A stretch of 64,000 nt of DNA from contig NZ_KB235914.1 in the NCBI RefSeq assembly GCF_000332175.1, forward strand, positions 1,861,368-1,925,367, given 5' to 3'. This stretch comes from Pseudanabaena sp. PCC 6802. GTDB taxonomy: Bacteria; Cyanobacteriota; Cyanobacteriia; Pseudanabaenales; Pseudanabaenaceae. The notes under the pieces are model-generated. The model was not told the origin of the DNA and searched no databases. It saw nothing but the letters and a program-made list of their open reading frames with translations. Shown here piece after piece: positions 56,285-64,000 of the stretch (position 1 is the stretch's first letter; each line of letters opens with the position of its first letter). The position numbers and the translations under genes were made by a program.

Positions 56285-57943
56285 CTAGGAAAACACGAAG
56301 GCATTGACAGCCACCAAACGGTAGCCTTGAGCCTGCGACTCTGAGGCGCGCCAGTCGAAGTCTTCTCGCGCCCATCCCCATACTGCCGTTCTGTCCTCGC
56401 TGTTTTTAGCCCAGATGGCATTGAAGCGCTCCCCTTGTCCATTTGGCAACACGAAGGCATTGATATCCATGAGGCGATACCCTTGAGACTGTAAGGTTGA
56501 AGCTTTCCAGTCAAAGTCCTTTCGCGCCCATCCCCATATTGCCGTTCGATCCTCGCTATTTTTAGCCCAGATGGCATTGAAGCGCTCCCCTTGACCGTTT
56601 GGCAGCACAAAGGCATTGAGATCCATGAGGCGATAGCCTTGGGACTGCAGCTTTGCAGCTTGCGCGTCAAAGTCCTTTCGCGCCCATCCCCATACTGCAG
56701 TTCGATCCTCATTGTTTTTAGCCCAGATGGCATTGAAACGCTCTCCTTGTCCATTCGGCAATACAAAAGCATTCAGATGCATCAGGCGATACCCTTGAGA
56801 CTGCAGCTTTGCAGCTTGCGCGTCAAAGTCCTTTCGCGCCCATCCCCATACTGCAGTTCGATCCTCATTGTTCTTTGCCCAGATGGCATTGAAACGCTCT
56901 CCCTGTCCATTCGGTAAAACGAAAGCATTCAGATCCATTAAGCGATAACCTTGCCCCTGCAATTCTGCGGCGCGACGGTCAAAGTCTGCCCTTGCCCATC
57001 CCCATACCGCAGTTCGATTCTCATTGTTCTTAGCCCAGATCGCATTAAAGCGCTCTGGACCTGGATCTGGCAACTTTATTCCGCTTGCCGTCCAGAAGGG
57101 GTATTCTGTATCAATACCTATCTCCCCATATCCGATCTTGCCAAACCCATTTTCTCCCCATCCAGTACCCCAGGAGTTCTTGACAATCCAACATTGCTCT
57201 GCTTCAGAATATCCAATAACCTCAACACAGTGCAGACCTACCTCTTCACCCGTAACGTGGGTGTAAACTCCACTACCATAGGTATAGAAATCCTCAAACA
57301 CGTGAATAACAGCCGAACAGGGGCCATGGTTAGTAAGATAGTTTTTGCGGTCAACAACGTTTGCCAGGGTTGAGGAATTAGTGATCTTCACTGCCTTTGA
57401 GCGATCGGATATATTCACGCAATGGGCAATCCAATAATGACGATCTGGGTTGGGGTCGTTCTTTGGTGGGCTATCAAATGCAGTCATGTAGGAGAAGTTA
57501 GTCTCATTGATAACGCCGCGAACTTTGATTTGATCGTAGGCTTGATCTGGCCACCAACCCTCACACGAAGCGCCATGGGAAGAGCAGAAATGCAGATCGG
57601 CTTCCGACAAATTCAATGACTTCCCACGCTCAATAGATGCCATCGATTCTACCACTGCAGTCGTGCAGAACGAGACACAAGAACCACAATATCCCTGATC
57701 TTTGACTCCAGTTACATGATTGCCGTTTCGGTTACGCCAATCCACAGCAGGAGCAAAATTAGCAATAGGAGCAGCAGCTAACCGAGCCGGAGCCATTGCA
57801 GATGCAAGAGCAGCTCGATCTATGACAACTCCCAGTAGAGCCATCCTTTCTCGATCGCTTAAAAGAGATTGTGGGGTTTGGCGAGCCGTCCATCGAGCCT
57901 GAGTTTCTCCGAGACGAGCATTTACTTCATTGAACGAAACCAT
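56285..57943 (-). CDS. papain-like (C1A) cysteine protease with five C-terminal tandem repeats
   Basis: A 552-residue protein. The N-terminal 60 residues may be a propeptide (MVSFNEVNARLGETQ). The C1 domain (about 65-292) has VDWRNRNG, oxyanion Gln83 and nucleophile Cys89 in KDQGYCGSCVSF, His238 in GLHCVEVIGY and Asn256 in KNSWGTGWGENGFG: a complete catalytic set. Residues 297-552 are five repeats of about 51 residues (ERFNAIWAKNNEDRTAVWGW then ARKDFDAQAAKLQSQGYRL) of the BTRD1 tandem-repeat type, likely for binding. No classical signal peptide. It is downstream of a chagasin-type inhibitor gene on the same strand (103-bp gap). Confidence 0.88.
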   Translation of the reverse strand: MVSFNEVNARLGETQARWTARQTPQSLLSDRERMALLGVVIDRAALASAMAPARLAAAPIANFAPAVDWRNRNGNHVTGVKDQGYCGSCVSFCTTAVVESMASIERGKSLNLSEADLHFCSSHGASCEGWWPDQAYDQIKVRGVINETNFSYMTAFDSPPKNDPNPDRHYWIAHCVNISDRSKAVKITNSSTLANVVDRKNYLTNHGPCSAVIHVFEDFYTYGSGVYTHVTGEEVGLHCVEVIGYSEAEQCWIVKNSWGTGWGENGFGKIGYGEIGIDTEYPFWTASGIKLPDPGPERFNAIWAKNNENRTAVWGWARADFDRRAAELQGQGYRLMDLNAFVLPNGQGERFNAIWAKNNEDRTAVWGWARKDFDAQAAKLQSQGYRLMHLNAFVLPNGQGERFNAIWAKNNEDRTAVWGWARKDFDAQAAKLQSQGYRLMDLNAFVLPNGQGERFNAIWAKNSEDRTAIWGWARKDFDWKASTLQSQGYRLMDINAFVLPNGQGERFNAIWAKNSEDRTAVWGWAREDFDWRASESQAQGYRLVAVNAFVFS

Positions 57944-58046
57944 AGTAATTATTTCCTTTGGATTTGATTTAGATTGAATTTAGACAGCATGTTCCTGCAA
58001 GTCATGGTTAGCATGACTTTGGCGAAACGAATTTGGGTTGAAGCCG

Positions 58047-58352
58047 TTAAACGTCGATCGCAATCTGAATGATGTGTTGCATTTGGGGAGGTTGGTCTTT
58101 CTCCCAGGGTCTGCTTTGCACAAACCGAATAGATATCCGTCCGATCGCATGTGCTCGGATGACAAACACTTCATCTCGGCTAGAACCCACCGGTAAAGGT
58201 TGTTGGTACTCTGCCTCAACCTTTGACACATCAATCGATGTTGCATTTCCCTCGATCTCATAACTCCAGCGATATCCTGCTGTACCAAGGCCTGGCAGAC
58301 GGAGTGTATATGTCTCTCCGATTTTGAGGGTAAGATTTGAAGGTACTTCCAT
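58047..58352 (-). CDS. chagasin-family (I42) cysteine protease inhibitor
   Basis: A 101-residue all-beta protein. The three inhibitory loops of chagasin are recognisable: GTAGYRW (24-29; NPTTGYxW in the family), PVGSSRDEVF (54-63; the Gly-rich loop) and RPWE (81-84). Chagasins are nanomolar inhibitors of papain-like C1 proteases, the class of the enzyme encoded 103 bp downstream. There is no signal peptide, so it would act in the cytoplasm, probably protecting the producer. The first loop departs from the strict NPTTG consensus. Confidence 0.82.
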   Translation of the reverse strand: MEVPSNLTLKIGETYTLRLPGLGTAGYRWSYEIEGNATSIDVSKVEAEYQQPLPVGSSRDEVFVIRAHAIGRISIRFVQSRPWEKDQPPQMQHIIQIAIDV

Positions 58353-58450
58353 TGTTGGTTCCTGAATCGCTTTTGATTTACAGAGTTGATGAGTAATGGC
58401 TCGGGCGATCGCTTCTTAAAAAATCGTATCAAAGCGATCGCTCGATCTAT

Positions 58451-58861
58451 TTAGAAGTCAATCTGATTTGCTGTACCAGATAGACTAACTGACATGTATG
58501 TCTGCGACTGACCCACAGTTTTTACAAGGGTCGATCGCGTGCTAAAAATAGCGATCGTATTCATTGGAGCCGATTTGGTCGTAGCAGGTACGGTTATCGC
58601 AGGAACGAGCAAGGTTAAGGTTTCAACCGTGCCAACAGCCTTTTGATTTCCGCTCAGGTTAACGGTCACCATCTGACCTAACTGAGTCTGTTCTACATGA
58701 ATCTCTTCGCCAACGAAGTTCAGAGTTTGACTGCCCCTGGTAAAGGAGAAGCGTGGAGTACCTGTAAAACTTGTAGTTTCGTATGTAACCCCGATACCGT
58801 AACCGCTGAGTATAAATTGATTCGGTTGTACCAAAACTGGTTGTGCTTGTACAGAAGTCAT
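58451..58861 (-). CDS. beta-rich hypothetical protein, first gene of the protease unit
   Basis: A 136-residue protein with no Cys and no signal peptide (MTSVQAQPVLVQPNQFILSG, then GYGIGVTYETTSFTGTPRFS and a Thr/Ser/Val-rich second half). It is predicted to be all-beta. I do not recognise a family. It is preceded by the shared promoter and followed by the chagasin gene (98 bp) and the protease gene, so the three may be one transcript. Confidence 0.55.
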   Translation of the reverse strand: MTSVQAQPVLVQPNQFILSGYGIGVTYETTSFTGTPRFSFTRGSQTLNFVGEEIHVEQTQLGQMVTVNLSGNQKAVGTVETLTLLVPAITVPATTKSAPMNTIAIFSTRSTLVKTVGQSQTYMSVSLSGTANQIDF

Positions 58862-58898
58862 GGATTTTACCTCGTAATTTGTGCTGAGATTTGTAATT

Positions 58899-58978
58899 AG
58901 AATAGATAATTTCTTCGAGATCGGAAATCGGATAAGTTAAGTAAAAGTCAGAATTTAGGATCGGAAAAGATCGGATCT
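58899..58978 (-). promoter_or_regulatory. shared promoter element, copy for the 136-aa/chagasin/protease unit
   Basis: GATCCGATCTTTTCCGATCC, then TTCTGACTTTTACTTAACTT, and -10 TATTCT (58899-58904) on the minus strand. The -35 region reads TTTCCG rather than CTGACA, so this copy is weaker at that position. The start codon lies 38 bp beyond. Confidence 0.7.
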
Positions 58979-58989
58979 GCTCTCTTTAG

Positions 58990-59033
58990 GCGATCGCCGC
59001 TCCCTTTGAATAAATTTGTGGAAGGGCGATCGC
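58990..59033 (-). repeat. HIP1-flanked block, second copy
   Basis: GCGATCGCCGCTCCCTTTGA, then ATAAATTTGTGGAAGGGCGA, matching 56083-56127 with few changes. It starts just past the stop of the RTX gene on the minus strand and precedes the shared promoter. Confidence 0.6.
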
Positions 59034-59049
59034 ACCTATTTCAGATTCC

Positions 59050-60345
59050 TTAAGCCACGACTACGAAATCCGAAAGACTGAGATTAGGAGCGCCACTTAT
59101 GTCAGCAATAACGCCACCAGTACCGCCAACTGTCAACAAACCTGGTAAAGAACCATTTTGGTTGTAGACCAGGGTGCCTCTGTGATAGACGATCTTGGCA
59201 TTGCTGAATTGAATATCGAAGACACTATCGACTACTTCAAAGTCTGAGGCAAGCAAACTACCTGGGCCACTCGCAAGCGCTGTGAAAGTGGTTTTATCGA
59301 GTACAATCTTGTCAGTACCGACTGCGAAGTCAGTAATCCGATCGAAATCGTCACCGCTATTTAAGGGGCGATTCATGTCGAAAAGGAAGCGATCGGAACC
59401 GGAACTGCCAGTCAAGATATCGGTACCTGACCCTTCACCTCCGTTAAGAGTGTCATTGCCATTACCGCCAATCAGAGTGTCAACTGAACCTTCTCCATCT
59501 AGGAAGTCGCTACCTTGGCTTCCGAGCAGGTTGTTACTGCCACTATTGCCATCGAGTGTAACCGATCCCTTGGTGAAAGCAGAAGCATCAATATTGACGG
59601 GAGCACTATTGTTTGAGAAAACAAACAGTTCCGCATTCTCAATTCCATTCAAGGAATCAGTACCGTCACCTGTCACGCTGGTATCAGTAAGAACAATATT
59701 AGATCCAACAGCAGCATTGACGAAAACTCTATCAATGCCATTCCCGCCGAAGAGAGCGTCATTGCCAAGTCCGCCCCTAAGGGTATCATTGCCATCTAGA
59801 CCGTTAATCGTGTCATTTCCTGCTAAACCACTCAAGTTATTATTGCCAGCGTTACCAAGCATGAGATTGCCTAGATCGTTGCCACCACCAGAAGTATTAC
59901 CAGTCCCAACTAGAGTAAGTCTTTCTACGTTTGCAGGCAAAGTGAATGAGACAGAAGAGTTGACGATATCATTTCCTTCATTAGCTAGCTCGGTGATGGA
60001 AGTATTGAATACTCCAACTGCATAGGTATCATTATCCGCTCCACCCACGAGGGTGTCTATACCTAAACCACCATTCAGGATATCGCTACCAGCACCACCG
60101 TTCAGGCTGTCATTACCTGCACCTCCAAAATTATCCCCAACGAGTTGGTCGTTACCAAGACCTCCACTCAGGATGTCATTACCATCCGCACCAAAGAGGA
60201 AGTCATTATCTGCTCCACCTATGAGTGTATCATTACCTCCCAGACCATTAACAGTATCATTACCTGCTAAAGCATCGATAAGGTTAGGCAATGCATCACC
60301 AGTGATGCTGTCATTACCTGGGGTAGGATTTCCAATAATAGCCAT
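59050..60345 (-). CDS. RTX (hemolysin-type calcium-binding) repeat protein
   Basis: A 431-residue acidic protein with many GGxGxDxUx nonapeptides (GGNDTLIGGADNDFLFGADG, GNDILSGGLGND) in three blocks, separated by beta-rich stretches. The C-terminal region (GSDRFLFDMNRPLNSGDDFD, then RITDFAVGTDKIVLD) resembles a type I secretion-type end. It has no N-terminal signal. No ABC exporter genes are in the window. Function (adhesion, S-layer or enzyme-like) is open; it has no catalytic domain. Confidence 0.88.
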   Translation of the reverse strand: MAIIGNPTPGNDSITGDALPNLIDALAGNDTVNGLGGNDTLIGGADNDFLFGADGNDILSGGLGNDQLVGDNFGGAGNDSLNGGAGSDILNGGLGIDTLVGGADNDTYAVGVFNTSITELANEGNDIVNSSVSFTLPANVERLTLVGTGNTSGGGNDLGNLMLGNAGNNNLSGLAGNDTINGLDGNDTLRGGLGNDALFGGNGIDRVFVNAAVGSNIVLTDTSVTGDGTDSLNGIENAELFVFSNNSAPVNIDASAFTKGSVTLDGNSGSNNLLGSQGSDFLDGEGSVDTLIGGNGNDTLNGGEGSGTDILTGSSGSDRFLFDMNRPLNSGDDFDRITDFAVGTDKIVLDKTTFTALASGPGSLLASDFEVVDSVFDIQFSNAKIVYHRGTLVYNQNGSLPGLLTVGGTGGVIADISGAPNLSLSDFVVVA

Positions 60346-60575: not shown

Positions 60576-63500
60576 GTGACTGCTGAAGAAGCCTTAGCCC
60601 TACTCGATACGCTATTAGAGCCAAAGCTTAAAGACATCCAGGAGCAGGTCTTTCGGTACGCTTGGCAAGGATGGACGTACCCCGAAATTGCCGAGTATCT
60701 CGGCTATGACAGCAGCTATATTCGCGATGTCGGTTACGAATTGTGGCGACAACTAACTCAGAAATTAGGCGAGCAAGTCACGAAAAAGAACGTGCAAGAT
60801 GTATTGAAGCGACAAACTCGACTGAGACAGAGTATTACCAAACACCTTGCTGCCTCCAACCCCGCCGCAATTGATGCACCTGTAGCGATCGCCCCCGAAG
60901 CAACCCCAATACCCAGAACGCCTGACACAGCTAACATTACCGATGGCGATAGGATAGTTCCTGCATCAATAGGATCGAGCACCAGTAATAACCAGTACTG
61001 GGGAGAAACGATCGATGTTTCGACGTTCTACGGTCGCGGTATAGAAATGGAGCGATTGCTGCAGTGGCTGATTGAGGATCGCTGTCGCTTGGTATCCGTG
61101 GTTGGCATGGGGGGAATTGGCAAGACTACTCTGGTAGTAAAGTCGATCGGGAAACTGCAGGACGAATTCGACTTTCTGATCTGGCAATCCTTGCGCAACG
61201 CTCCTCCGATCGCTGAAGTATTGGTTACCTCAATTCAACATCTCTCTCAGCAACGCGAATCGCCTGTGGATCGATCGATTGAAACCCTAATCTCCCAGTT
61301 GATAGACTATTTCCGTTCCTATCGCTGTTTGTTGATATTAGATAACTTCGATGCGGTTTTAGAAAGCGCCGGGGGTACCAACTCATCGTCGGGTAGTGGG
61401 GCAAGGCAATATAGGGAGGGATGTGAGGGATATGAGGAACTGCTTAGAAGAGCCAGCAGCGAATTTCATTCTAGCTGTTTAGTTCTGACAAGTCGCGTAA
61501 AGCCAAAAATATTGAGTCCGTTAGAAGGGGATAGACTATCCGTGCGATCGCTGCTTTTAACTGGGTTGAGCAAGGCAGAAATACCAGAGATTTTCAAAGT
61601 TGATGGCTGTTTCTCGCAAGTAGAAACCGATTGGGAGCGTTTGACTGAGATTTATGCTGGCAATCCCCTGGCGCTCAAAATCGTTTCGACTACAGTACGA
61701 GATCTTTTCGATGGCAGCATTCCAGAGTTTCTAGCTCAGGGGGCGATCGCATTTGGGGATATTAATTTACTGCTAGACGAACAATTCGATCGCCTCACTG
61801 ATTTGGAAAAGCAGGTGATGTATTGGCTGGCGATCGATCTCGAATGGGTGACACTTGCGCAATTGCGGGAGAATTTCTTTCCCAGTCCGCTGTCGCATAC
61901 CTTGATGGAGGCACTGCTATCTCTGGTGCAGCGATCGCTGATCGAGAAAAGTGCTGGCAATTTCACGCTGCAACCAGTGGTGATGGAGTACGTAACGGAA
62001 CAGTTGCTTGGACATATTAGCGAGGAACTGGAAACGCAGGAGTTAAATCTATTTGTCGATCATGCTTTGATTAAGGCTCAGGCGAAGGATTACATTCGGG
62101 AGAGTCAAGTCCGCGTCATTCTAGAACCACTGGCTCAAAGATTAGTTGGTAAATGGCGATCGAAGAAAGAAGTAGAATATCGTCTTAAAAGCATTTTATT
62201 CAAGTTGCGATCGGCTGCGCCACGCAAGCTAACGGAGTTTCCCCACTCAGTTGGATATGCGGGCGGGAACATTATCAACCTATTGCGCCAACTCCAGATC
62301 GATCTGAGCGGCTATGATTTCTCTCATTTGAATATTTGGCAAGCTTACCTTCAGAATACGGCGCTCCATCAGGTCAACTTTGCGTATGCCGACTTCGCCA
62401 AATCGGTGTTCGCTGAAACTTTAGGTAGTATTTATACAGTTGCGCTTAGTTCCGATGGCAACTTTTTAGCAACGGGCGATACCCATCCCGAAGTTCGTTT
62501 GTGGCAAATGCCAACCGGTCGGCATTTACTGACTTTAGTGGGGCATAAGGGGTCGATTTGGTCGCTGACATTTAGTCCGGATGGAAAAACACTTGCCAGT
62601 TCGAGTTTCGATGAAACCATTAAGCTATGGGATCCTCACACAGGGGAGTGTCTCAGAACTTTTCGACATAGCGAAGTTGGAGGTATCCGATTCAGCCCAT
62701 GCGGTCAGATCGTCGTTGTTTCCGGTCATGACAGTAAAATTCAGCTTTGGAACGTAAACACTGGGGAATGCTTTAGAACATTGCACGGTCATACTGGTGG
62801 AATAGCAAATGCTACATATAGTCCGAATGGACAAATCCTCGCCAGTTGCAGTAGCGATGCCACGATTTGTCTTTGGGATGTAAAAACTGGGGAATGCCTC
62901 AAAACCTTACACGGGCATAGTAGCTGGATTTGGACAGTGGAATTTACTCCCGACGGTCGCACACTTGCTAGTGGTAGTAAAGATAGTACTATTCGTTTGT
63001 GGGATATAGCTAAGGGAGAGTGTTTTAAGATTCTTGAAGGGCACGGCAGTTGGGTTAGATCGCTCGTAATTAGTTCAGATGGAAAAACCTTGATAAGCGC
63101 TAGTGAAGATCGTACGATACGATTGTGGGATTTAGAGACTGGTCAATGCCTTAAAATCCTCCAGGGACATACAAGCAGAATAACATCGATTGCCCTCAGT
63201 ACAAACGATCTAACGCTTGTTAGTGGAGGCTCCGATCTTGCTATCAAAATATGGGATGTCAAATCTGGGAAATGTAGTAAAACATTACAAGGGCACGGTC
63301 ACATAATTAGTGCTGTGGTATTCAGTCCCAACGGTCAAACTTTAGTCAGCGCCAGCTCCGATCGCACGGTTCAGATGTGGGATGTAGACTCTGGAGCACG
63401 TCTGAATACATTACACGAGAATGTCGATATAGTCTGGGCAGTTACGTTCAGCCCAGATGGTCAAACCCTTGCTACGAACAGCGATCGCGCTGTCAAACTC

Positions 63501-64000
63501 TGGAGTACGAGTACCTGTCAGTGTCTCAAGACATTGCACCGTCGCAGTGCAGGTTTAATCTCTTCAGTCGTATTCAATGGCAACGGTCAACTCCTGGCTA
63601 GCACCAGTCACGATAAAATCGTCAGACTTTGGAATACAAGTACTGGTGAATGTTTGAGGGAGTGGCAGGGAGATACTACAATTGTATATTCAGTGTCGTT
63701 CAGCCCGGACGATCGCATCCTCGCCACGGGCGGCATCGACGCAAGAATCAAGCTGTGGGATGTAACTACTGGTGAATGCCTCAAAACGTTGCATGATGGC
63801 ACCCAAGTCTGGTCGATTGCCTTCAGTCCAGATGGGCTAATCCTGGCTAATGGGAGTAGTCGTAATACGGTGAAACTGTGGGAGGTAGACTCTGGGAAAT
63901 GCCTCAAGGAGTTGGAAGGGCACAACAGTCAGATCTGGTCAGTTGCCTTCAGTCCAGATGGACAAATCCTAGCCAGCGGGAGTAGCGATCGCACGATTCG
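60576..64000 (+). CDS. STAND protein: N-terminal HTH, NB-ARC ATPase, WD40 repeats (3' end outside window)
   Basis: The frame is open from GTG 60576 (VTAEEALALLDTLLEPKLKD) to the window edge, over 1,140 codons. Residues 1-65 hold a small helix-turn-helix-like domain (YAWQGWTYPEIAEYLGYDSS), seen at the N-terminus of many cyanobacterial NB-ARC proteins. NB-ARC follows with Walker A GMGGIGKTTL (about 180) and Walker B LLILDNFD (about 250). A helical region and a pentapeptide-like stretch (SHLNIWQAYLQNTALHQVNF) lead to WD40 repeats from about residue 612; 13 are visible. Such proteins oligomerise on ligand sensing; roles include signalling and possibly antiphage defence. Confidence 0.9.
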   Translation, partial: MTAEEALALLDTLLEPKLKDIQEQVFRYAWQGWTYPEIAEYLGYDSSYIRDVGYELWRQLTQKLGEQVTKKNVQDVLKRQTRLRQSITKHLAASNPAAIDAPVAIAPEATPIPRTPDTANITDGDRIVPASIGSSTSNNQYWGETIDVSTFYGRGIEMERLLQWLIEDRCRLVSVVGMGGIGKTTLVVKSIGKLQDEFDFLIWQSLRNAPPIAEVLVTSIQHLSQQRESPVDRSIETLISQLIDYFRSYRCLLILDNFDAVLESAGGTNSSSGSGARQYREGCEGYEELLRRASSEFHSSCLVLTSRVKPKILSPLEGDRLSVRSLLLTGLSKAEIPEIFKVDGCFSQVETDWERLTEIYAGNPLALKIVSTTVRDLFDGSIPEFLAQGAIAFGDINLLLDEQFDRLTDLEKQVMYWLAIDLEWVTLAQLRENFFPSPLSHTLMEALLSLVQRSLIEKSAGNFTLQPVVMEYVTEQLLGHISEELETQELNLFVDHALIKAQAKDYIRESQVRVILEPLAQRLVGKWRSKKEVEYRLKSILFKLRSAAPRKLTEFPHSVGYAGGNIINLLRQLQIDLSGYDFSHLNIWQAYLQNTALHQVNFAYADFAKSVFAETLGSIYTVALSSDGNFLATGDTHPEVRLWQMPTGRHLLTLVGHKGSIWSLTFSPDGKTLASSSFDETIKLWDPHTGECLRTFRHSEVGGIRFSPCGQIVVVSGHDSKIQLWNVNTGECFRTLHGHTGGIANATYSPNGQILASCSSDATICLWDVKTGECLKTLHGHSSWIWTVEFTPDGRTLASGSKDSTIRLWDIAKGECFKILEGHGSWVRSLVISSDGKTLISASEDRTIRLWDLETGQCLKILQGHTSRITSIALSTNDLTLVSGGSDLAIKIWDVKSGKCSKTLQGHGHIISAVVFSPNGQTLVSASSDRTVQMWDVDSGARLNTLHENVDIVWAVTFSPDGQTLATNSDRAVKLWSTSTCQCLKTLHRRSAGLISSVVFNGNGQLLASTSHDKIVRLWNTSTGECLREWQGDTTIVYSVSFSPDDRILATGGIDARIKLWDVTTGECLKTLHDGTQVWSIAFSPDGLILANGSSRNTVKLWEVDSGKCLKELEGHNSQIWSVAFSPDGQILASGSSDRTI

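What the first reader, a model, noticed from the sequence alone, without database searches (positions are those of the whole stretch)
56285..58352. Papain-like protease and chagasin-type inhibitor encoded side by side
Seen: an intact C1A protease (Gln83, Cys89, His238, Asn256) with five 51-residue repeats, and 103 bp upstream on the same strand a 101-residue protein with the three chagasin loops (GTAGYRW, PVGSS, RPWE). Known: I42 chagasins inhibit C1 proteases. Inference: a self-protection pair, where the inhibitor keeps the protease silent in the producer and the repeat array addresses it to a target. The missing signal peptides suggest either intracellular action or a non-Sec export route. 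I am not aware of this linkage being described in cyanobacteria.
Basis: partly seen in the sequence, partly recalled or inferred. Interest (0 to 1): 0.78.

Follow-up and report, generated by a model that had tools for sequence, protein, structure and literature searches.

The report
Guarded papain-like protease with inhibitor
This cyanobacterium encodes a papain-like protein-cutting enzyme beside a small protein of the family that blocks such enzymes, and close kin of the pair sit side by side in very different bacteria and archaea, so the arrangement is an old, widespread and apparently undescribed two- or three-gene unit whose function can now be tested.

Summary
A C1A protease (56285-57943, -) with intact Gln83/Cys89/His238/Asn256 and five 52-residue BTRD1 repeats lies 103 bp downstream of a chagasin-family (I42) protein (58047-58352, -). 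Neither has a signal peptide. Two things were missed. (1) Residues 1-40 of the protease are predicted with high confidence as a short, cathepsin-B-like propeptide: the best structural matches are zymogens (procathepsin B Z 29). (2) The linkage is no cyanobacterial one-off. In a 386-genome phylum sample, 10 of 13 I42 loci of Cyanobacteriia lie within 2 kb of a C1 gene, and this genome carries two such pairs. In 80 related loci from many phyla and archaea, 78 have an I42 gene nearby. Of 63 with an ~80-residue tail domain, 60 have a third gene with that domain, whose predicted OB fold is best matched by AB5-toxin B subunits. The window lacks that domain and carries BTRD1 repeats instead. In 276 Actinomycetota genomes C1 and I42 are otherwise almost never linked, so the pairing belongs to this protease subfamily. 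Best reading: a cytosolic, double-locked (propeptide plus cognate inhibitor) protease. Its target and release route are unknown. No inhibition was measured.

The parts
56285..57943 (-). Gene for C1A papain-like cysteine protease, 552 aa, no signal peptide, with C-terminal BTRD1 repeats
   Evidence: Pfam PF00112 9.1e-43; catalytic residues invariant in 56 homologues
57764..57943 (-). N-terminal propeptide-like segment (residues 1 to about 60; motif W18...LLG38)
   Evidence: Residues 1-40 pLDDT about 80-96; VIA-align: the 29 top entries are proforms or precursors of papain-like enzymes, aligned from model residue 1 or 3; PF08127 Propeptide_C1 is the only family found in more than one of 36 leaders, sub-threshold; W18 and G38 invariant in 56 homologues
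57074..57757 (-). C1A catalytic domain (residues 63-290; Gln83, Cys89, His238, Asn256)
56288..57055 (-). Five 52-residue BTRD1 (PF17660) repeats (residues 297-552), the only BTRD1 copies found in the genome
   Evidence: poorly modelled (block means of pLDDT 29-67)
58047..58352 (-). Gene for chagasin-family (I42) cysteine protease inhibitor, 101 aa, no signal peptide; loops LGTAG / PVGSS / RPWE
   Evidence: PF09394 1.5e-13; solved relatives 2wgn (inhibitor of cysteine peptidase) 1.2e-4, chagasin 8e-4

Best explanation
The locus encodes a cytosolic, double-locked cysteine protease. The C1A enzyme is made as a zymogen with a short cathepsin-B-like propeptide. The neighbouring I42 protein is its cognate inhibitor: it wedges its three loops over the active-site cleft and mops up enzyme that activates too early, so the producer is not digested. 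The C-terminal module (BTRD1 repeats here; an OB-fold domain, lectin-like propellers or DUF5648 in relatives) binds whatever the enzyme acts on. The enzyme acts when separated from the inhibitor, most likely outside the cell after lysis or non-Sec export, against competitors or predators. Shown: sequence families, intact catalytic residues, no signal peptides, recurrent linkage, propeptide-like fold in a model. Inferred: inhibition, cognate specificity, binding role of the tail, release and target. The last two are the weakest steps.
For: Both families confirmed. This genome has exactly two C1 and two I42 genes, and they form two pairs. Phylum sample: 10 of 13 I42 loci of Cyanobacteriia sit within 2 kb of a C1 gene, chance expectation about 0.01; G017 adds another pair. 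78 of 80 related protease loci across phyla and archaea have I42, 77 of them within 2.5 kb. Tree distances of C1 and I42 correlate (r 0.42; maximum of 2000 permutations 0.18). Flanking genes outside the unit are unrelated, so the unit stands alone. No signal peptide on any of 76 C1 proteins, and 66 of 78 I42 proteins have none either, so both partners meet in the cytosol. Zymogen-like fold. RefSeq annotation of a Deinococcus plasmid independently names C1 peptidase / hypothetical / I42.
Against: The window inhibitor has lost the canonical NPTTG and GxGG motifs. In the Pseudomonas I42 inhibitor Cip1, replacing both threonines by alanine lowered inhibition (PMC5014320); here one of the two is alanine. 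The window protease is a long branch with no close relative in the samples. Twelve I42 proteins may have signal peptides, and one cyanobacterial type has both partners Sec-exported, so the cytosolic model does not fit all pairs. No complex could be modelled and no activity is known. No secretion system is linked.
Confidence: 0.6

Rival explanations
1. A toxin-antitoxin-like or programmed-death device: the protease acts inside the producer when stress or infection removes the I42 antitoxin.
For: Both partners are cytosolic. The unit is compact, spread over distant phyla and found on plasmids. On the Deinococcus plasmid it lies next to two caspase-family genes. The window has a STAND/WD40-type gene next door at 60576.
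Against: No PADLOC defence model matches the C1 or I42 domains (the NACHT hit lies in the repeats). Flanking genes (109 scanned) show no recurrent defence families. Large, variable lectin-like tails are odd for a purely internal toxin. A propeptide already restrains the enzyme.
Confidence: 0.2
2. A housekeeping or nutritional intracellular protease whose inhibitor only tunes its activity.
For: Lack of signal peptides; intracellular C1A peptidases without signal peptides are reported for prokaryotes (PMC10380794).
Against: Patchy distribution: C1 in 45 and I42 in 18 of 386 genomes of the phylum sample, and tails that change freely, unlike a housekeeping enzyme.
Confidence: 0.12
3. The I42 protein guards against foreign proteases and its place beside the C1 gene is accidental.
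For: Many I42 genes have no C1 in the genome: in 276 Actinomycetota genomes 53 have I42, 26 have C1 over the cut-off, and only the seed genome has them linked. Pseudomonas I42 Cip1 inhibits plant proteases (PMC5014320).
Against: Recurrent linkage far above chance in this protease subfamily and two pairs in this one genome.
Confidence: 0.04

Closest known systems
Staphopain-staphostatin (C47-I57) operons of Staphylococcus
   Same: Papain-fold protease with a neighbouring gene for a specific inhibitor without signal peptide, taken to protect the producer's cytosol (own knowledge; complex reviewed in PMC7863939)
   Different: Different protease family (C47, Sec-secreted) and unrelated inhibitor fold (I57); here a C1A enzyme without signal peptide and an I42 inhibitor
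C10 proteases with adjacent inhibitors (SpeB-Spi, Bacteroides fragilis Bfp; cf. PMC2873492, PMC3462683)
   Same: Adjacent protease and inhibitor genes (own knowledge)
   Different: C10 family, exported; inhibitors are not I42
Protozoan chagasin-cruzipain
   Same: I42 inhibitor controls an endogenous C1A protease inside the producer (PMC5014320)
   Different: Not gene neighbours; the protease is lysosomal and has an I29-type propeptide (own knowledge)
Pseudomonas I42 inhibitors (P. aeruginosa ICP, 2wgn; P. syringae Cip1)
   Same: Same inhibitor family; 2wgn is the closest I42 relative among solved sequences, with a nearly identical RPWEKD stretch
   Different: Secreted; most Pseudomonas genomes lack C1A proteases (PMC5014320)
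Cathepsin B zymogen
   Same: Short propeptide plus C1A domain, best structural match (Z 29.2, 265 residues, rmsd 2.9)
   Different: Eukaryotic and secretory; no I42 neighbour; no BTRD1

Membership tests
MEROPS C1A (papain family) | Oxyanion Gln and catalytic Cys, His, Asn in order within a C1 domain | tested here: met
MEROPS C1A (papain family) | Peptidase activity | not testable with these tools
   Needs purified enzyme
Cathepsin-B-type propeptide (PF08127) | Profile match over the curated cut-off | tested here: not met
   Best leader 15.1 bits against a cut-off of 32.7; the window leader itself has no match
Cathepsin-B-type propeptide (PF08127) | Fold and place of the segment as in C1 zymogens | tested here: met
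   Model residues 1-40 at high pLDDT; best matches are zymogens aligned through the propeptide
I42 chagasin family | Profile match over the curated cut-off | tested here: met
   51.3 bits against 27.2
I42 chagasin family | NPTTG, GxGG and RPW loop motifs | tested here: inconclusive
   RPWE present; NPTTG reads LGTAG, GxGG reads PVGSS; 36 of 78 cassette I42 proteins have NPTTG, most others close variants
I42 chagasin family | Inhibits a C1 peptidase | not testable with these tools
   Needs an inhibition assay
C1A-I42 cassette described here | Signal-less C1A with W...LG propeptide plus I42 gene within 2.5 kb | tested here: met
C1A-I42 cassette described here | OB-fold tail domain and third gene with the same domain (majority form) | tested here: not met
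   The window has BTRD1 repeats and no such gene beside it; it belongs to the two-gene minority with other tails
AB5 toxin B subunits (tail domain of relatives, not the window) | Same fold clearly above other OB folds | tested here: inconclusive
   LT-IIb B Z 10.7, 78 residues, rmsd 3.6, 13% identity; other folds (CipA 9.7, SilF 9.6) within about 1 Z; Foldseek top 50 all B subunits
Known anti-phage defence systems | PADLOC model match outside the repeats | tested here: inconclusive
   Only a NACHT hit inside the BTRD1 repeats

The most novel reading that the evidence does not exclude
A pan-prokaryotic weapon class: a zymogen papain-like protease with exchangeable binding tails (most often a B-subunit-like OB domain that is also made as a separate protein) and a dedicated chagasin-family immunity protein, released by lysis or non-Sec export and unlocked in the target, for example in an acidic compartment of a grazer. 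The window would be its BTRD1-tailed variant.
Probability: 0.2. Interest if true: 0.85.

Novelty: new variant of a known kind. Interest (0 to 1): 0.62.

Why it matters
A 2016 paper states that a role for bacterial chagasins had not yet been elucidated and that most Pseudomonas genomes, though they carry a chagasin, lack a C1A protease (PMC5014320); a 2009 paper notes that inhibition by a bacterial chagasin had been verified only against a eukaryotic enzyme (PMC2784779). A conserved C1A-I42 gene pair gives bacterial chagasins an obvious native target and makes the question testable with two purified proteins. It also points to an undescribed conserved third component in the majority form.

Tried and rejected
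Chance adjacency: rejected on linkage counts. A general C1-I42 linkage: rejected, since in Actinomycetota the two families are almost never neighbours. The leader as a double-glycine export signal: considered because of the LSxxE...LG pattern; spacing differs and the zymogen fold explains it better. A dedicated secretion system or defence island: no recurrent neighbour families. The upstream 136-aa and RTX genes as part of the unit: the 136-aa protein has no relative in 37 other genomes of the family; no terminator-like site separates the genes, so co-transcription stays open. Phage origin: phage records give only weak C1 hits; of nine viral-contig hits one has an I42. Leader profile against PDB sequences: no hit, so the propeptide claim rests on the model and on sub-threshold PF08127 matches. 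Pfam/NCBIfam hits inside the repeats (glyoxalase, PUCC, beta-lactamase, NACHT) were judged artefacts of the repeats. Literature searches for a bacterial C1A-I42 operon found none, but the 2002 chagasin family paper (PMC2373688) was not held, so earlier notice of single cases cannot be excluded. Protease-inhibitor complex: could not be modelled with the tools allowed.

Full report
OBSERVATION. The two genes are real and as described. The protease gene (56285-57943, minus) encodes 552 residues with a C1 domain (Pfam 9e-43) and BTRD1 repeats (3e-34); the upstream gene (58047-58352, minus) encodes 101 residues of the I42 chagasin family (1.5e-13, cut-off passed). Gln83, Cys89, His238 and Asn256 are in place. 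The spacing is 103 bp and both starts have plausible ribosome-binding sites. The repeats are 52 residues apart, not 51, and are the only BTRD1 copies found in the genome. The inhibitor keeps RPWE but has LGTAG for NPTTG and PVGSS for GxGG.

SAME GENOME. The genome has exactly two C1 and two I42 genes. The second C1 (C5:2522521) and the second I42 (C5:2524142) lie about 1 kb apart on one strand, and that inhibitor has an N-terminal hydrophobic signal segment. So both proteases of the genome have an I42 neighbour, although the two proteases belong to different types.

CYANOBACTERIA. In an evenly drawn sample of 386 genomes of the phylum, I42 over the cut-off occurs in 16 genomes and C1 in 45. 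In the class Cyanobacteriia there are 13 such I42 loci. Ten lie within 2 kb of a C1 gene (two in this genome, two in G273, one each in G111, G115, G134, G140, G190, G281). The other three are in genomes without any C1 match (G186, G192, G416). Chance would give about 0.01. A Pseudanabaena genome, G017, adds another pair. Three protease types are involved: signal-less enzymes with a leader, as in the window; short signal-less enzymes whose inhibitor has a signal segment; and Sec-exported enzymes with Sec-exported inhibitors. In the six genomes of other classes with an I42 match no pair was linked.

BEYOND CYANOBACTERIA. An alignment of four leader-type proteases was used to scan one genome per species of GTDB release 220. 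354 relatives were found and the best 80 kept, from Cyanobacteriota, Pseudomonadota, Acidobacteriota, Actinomycetota, Bacteroidota, Chloroflexota, Thermodesulfobacteriota, other phyla and archaea. A local I42 profile finds the inhibitor gene in 78 of 80 loci, 77 within 2.5 kb; one miss (L071) is at a contig end. It lies on the same strand in 65, and upstream as in the window in five (L114, L125, L127, L132, L148). The inhibitor most like the window's is L148's (36% identity), which shares LGTxGY and the upstream place. The 80 are the nearest relatives of a query that itself has I42, so 78/80 is not an unbiased rate for all C1 genes. As a contrast, in 276 Actinomycetota genomes 53 have I42, 26 have C1 over the cut-off, and only the seed genome shows them linked. 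The pairing is therefore a property of this protease subfamily, not of the families at large. C1 and I42 tree distances correlate (r 0.42, permutation maximum 0.18); shared descent alone could produce part of this.

THE LEADER. The N-terminal segment of these proteases has an invariant Trp (W18) and Gly (G38), as invariant as the catalytic residues among 56 homologues. The AlphaFold2 model gives residues 1-40 high confidence (block means 80-96). The 29 best structural matches are proforms or precursors of papain-like enzymes, aligned from model residue 1 or 3 through the propeptide, led by procathepsin B (Z 29.2, 265 residues, rmsd 2.9; Foldseek agrees). The Pfam cathepsin-B-type propeptide PF08127 is the only family found in more than one of 36 leaders (6 members, best E 0.022), but below its cut-off and not in the window protein; a profile search of PDB sequences found nothing. 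I conclude a diverged, short propeptide, likely but not proven.

THE TAILS AND THE THIRD GENE. 63 of the 80 proteases have a tail of about 80 residues; where scanned it has no Pfam match. 60 of these 63 loci have a further gene with a disordered linker and the same domain, usually between the protease and the inhibitor. RefSeq shows the same order on a Deinococcus plasmid (domain confirmed). The domain of the L007 protein is modelled well (residues 88-166, mostly above 90). Foldseek's first 50 PDB hits are all AB5-toxin B subunits (best E 3e-4). VIA-align gives LT-IIb B Z 10.7 (78 residues, rmsd 3.6, 13% identity), with other families about one Z lower. A shared OB fold shows no function. Most remaining proteases have long tails instead: DUF346 or other propeller-like repeats, DUF5648, MIR/NBR1/PASTA, and BTRD1 in the window; a few have almost no tail (L125, L132, L137, L139).

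LOCALISATION AND CONTEXT. None of 76 protease N-termini has a hydrophobic signal segment, and 66 of 78 inhibitors have none (crude hydropathy). Genes outside the unit are unrelated between loci (109 neighbours), so the unit is self-contained and not tied to a secretion system. No terminator-like site was found between the four minus-strand genes 56285-60345, so the window pair may be co-transcribed with the upstream 136-aa and RTX genes; nothing shows that these belong to the unit.

MECHANISM. The best-supported reading is a zymogen protease held in check twice: by its propeptide and by a cognate inhibitor made in the same compartment. This resembles the staphopain-staphostatin arrangement in logic, with unrelated proteins. 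Whether the enzyme is a weapon released outside, a death device inside, or a regulated cell protease is not settled; I favour release outside because of the exchangeable tails, with moderate confidence.

KNOWN OR NEW. No paper in the held library was found to describe a bacterial C1A-I42 operon; one key older paper was not held. Published statements that the role of bacterial chagasins was unresolved (PMC5014320) and that inhibition had been verified only against a eukaryotic enzyme (PMC2784779) make the pair worth testing. A protease with a neighbouring inhibitor is a known kind; this combination and its third component appear to be a new variant.

Noticed in passing
L007:9072-9572 and the 60 loci among L070-L149: Uncharacterised small protein with a disordered P-rich linker and an OB-like domain, shared with the protease tail; Foldseek best matches are AB5 B subunits.
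   Followed up: partly
L159 (Deinococcus aetherius plasmid pDAETH-2): C1 / OB-domain protein / I42 directly followed by two caspase-family genes.
   Followed up: partly
L160 (Streptomyces canus plasmid): 1023-aa protein with a long unannotated N-terminal part and C1 at the C-terminus, followed by I42: a different architecture with the same neighbour.
   Followed up: no
L066 (G186) and L067 (G192): I42 beside the same pentapeptide-repeat-like gene as in the secreted C1-I42 pairs of L058 and L061-L063, but no C1 gene in the genome: apparent loss of the protease with the inhibitor kept.
   Followed up: no
L059:8742-9827 (Richelia sinica): The protease reading frame is interrupted by a stop while the OB-domain and I42 genes are intact: pseudogene or sequencing error.
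   Followed up: no
L006:7429-9418 (second pair of the same genome): Short C1 protease without signal peptide and I42 with a signal segment, which would place the two in different compartments.
   Followed up: partly
window 58451-58861 and 59050-60345, minus strand: 136-aa orphan protein with no Pfam match over cut-off and an RTX calcium-binding repeat protein directly upstream of the pair, no terminator-like site between.
   Followed up: partly
window 60576-63998, plus strand: Large STAND/WD40-type protein running off the window, divergently oriented to the gene cluster.
   Followed up: no
Actinomycetota sample: Many genomes carry tandem I42 domains in one reading frame or single I42 genes without any C1 match, so their targets are unknown.
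   Followed up: no
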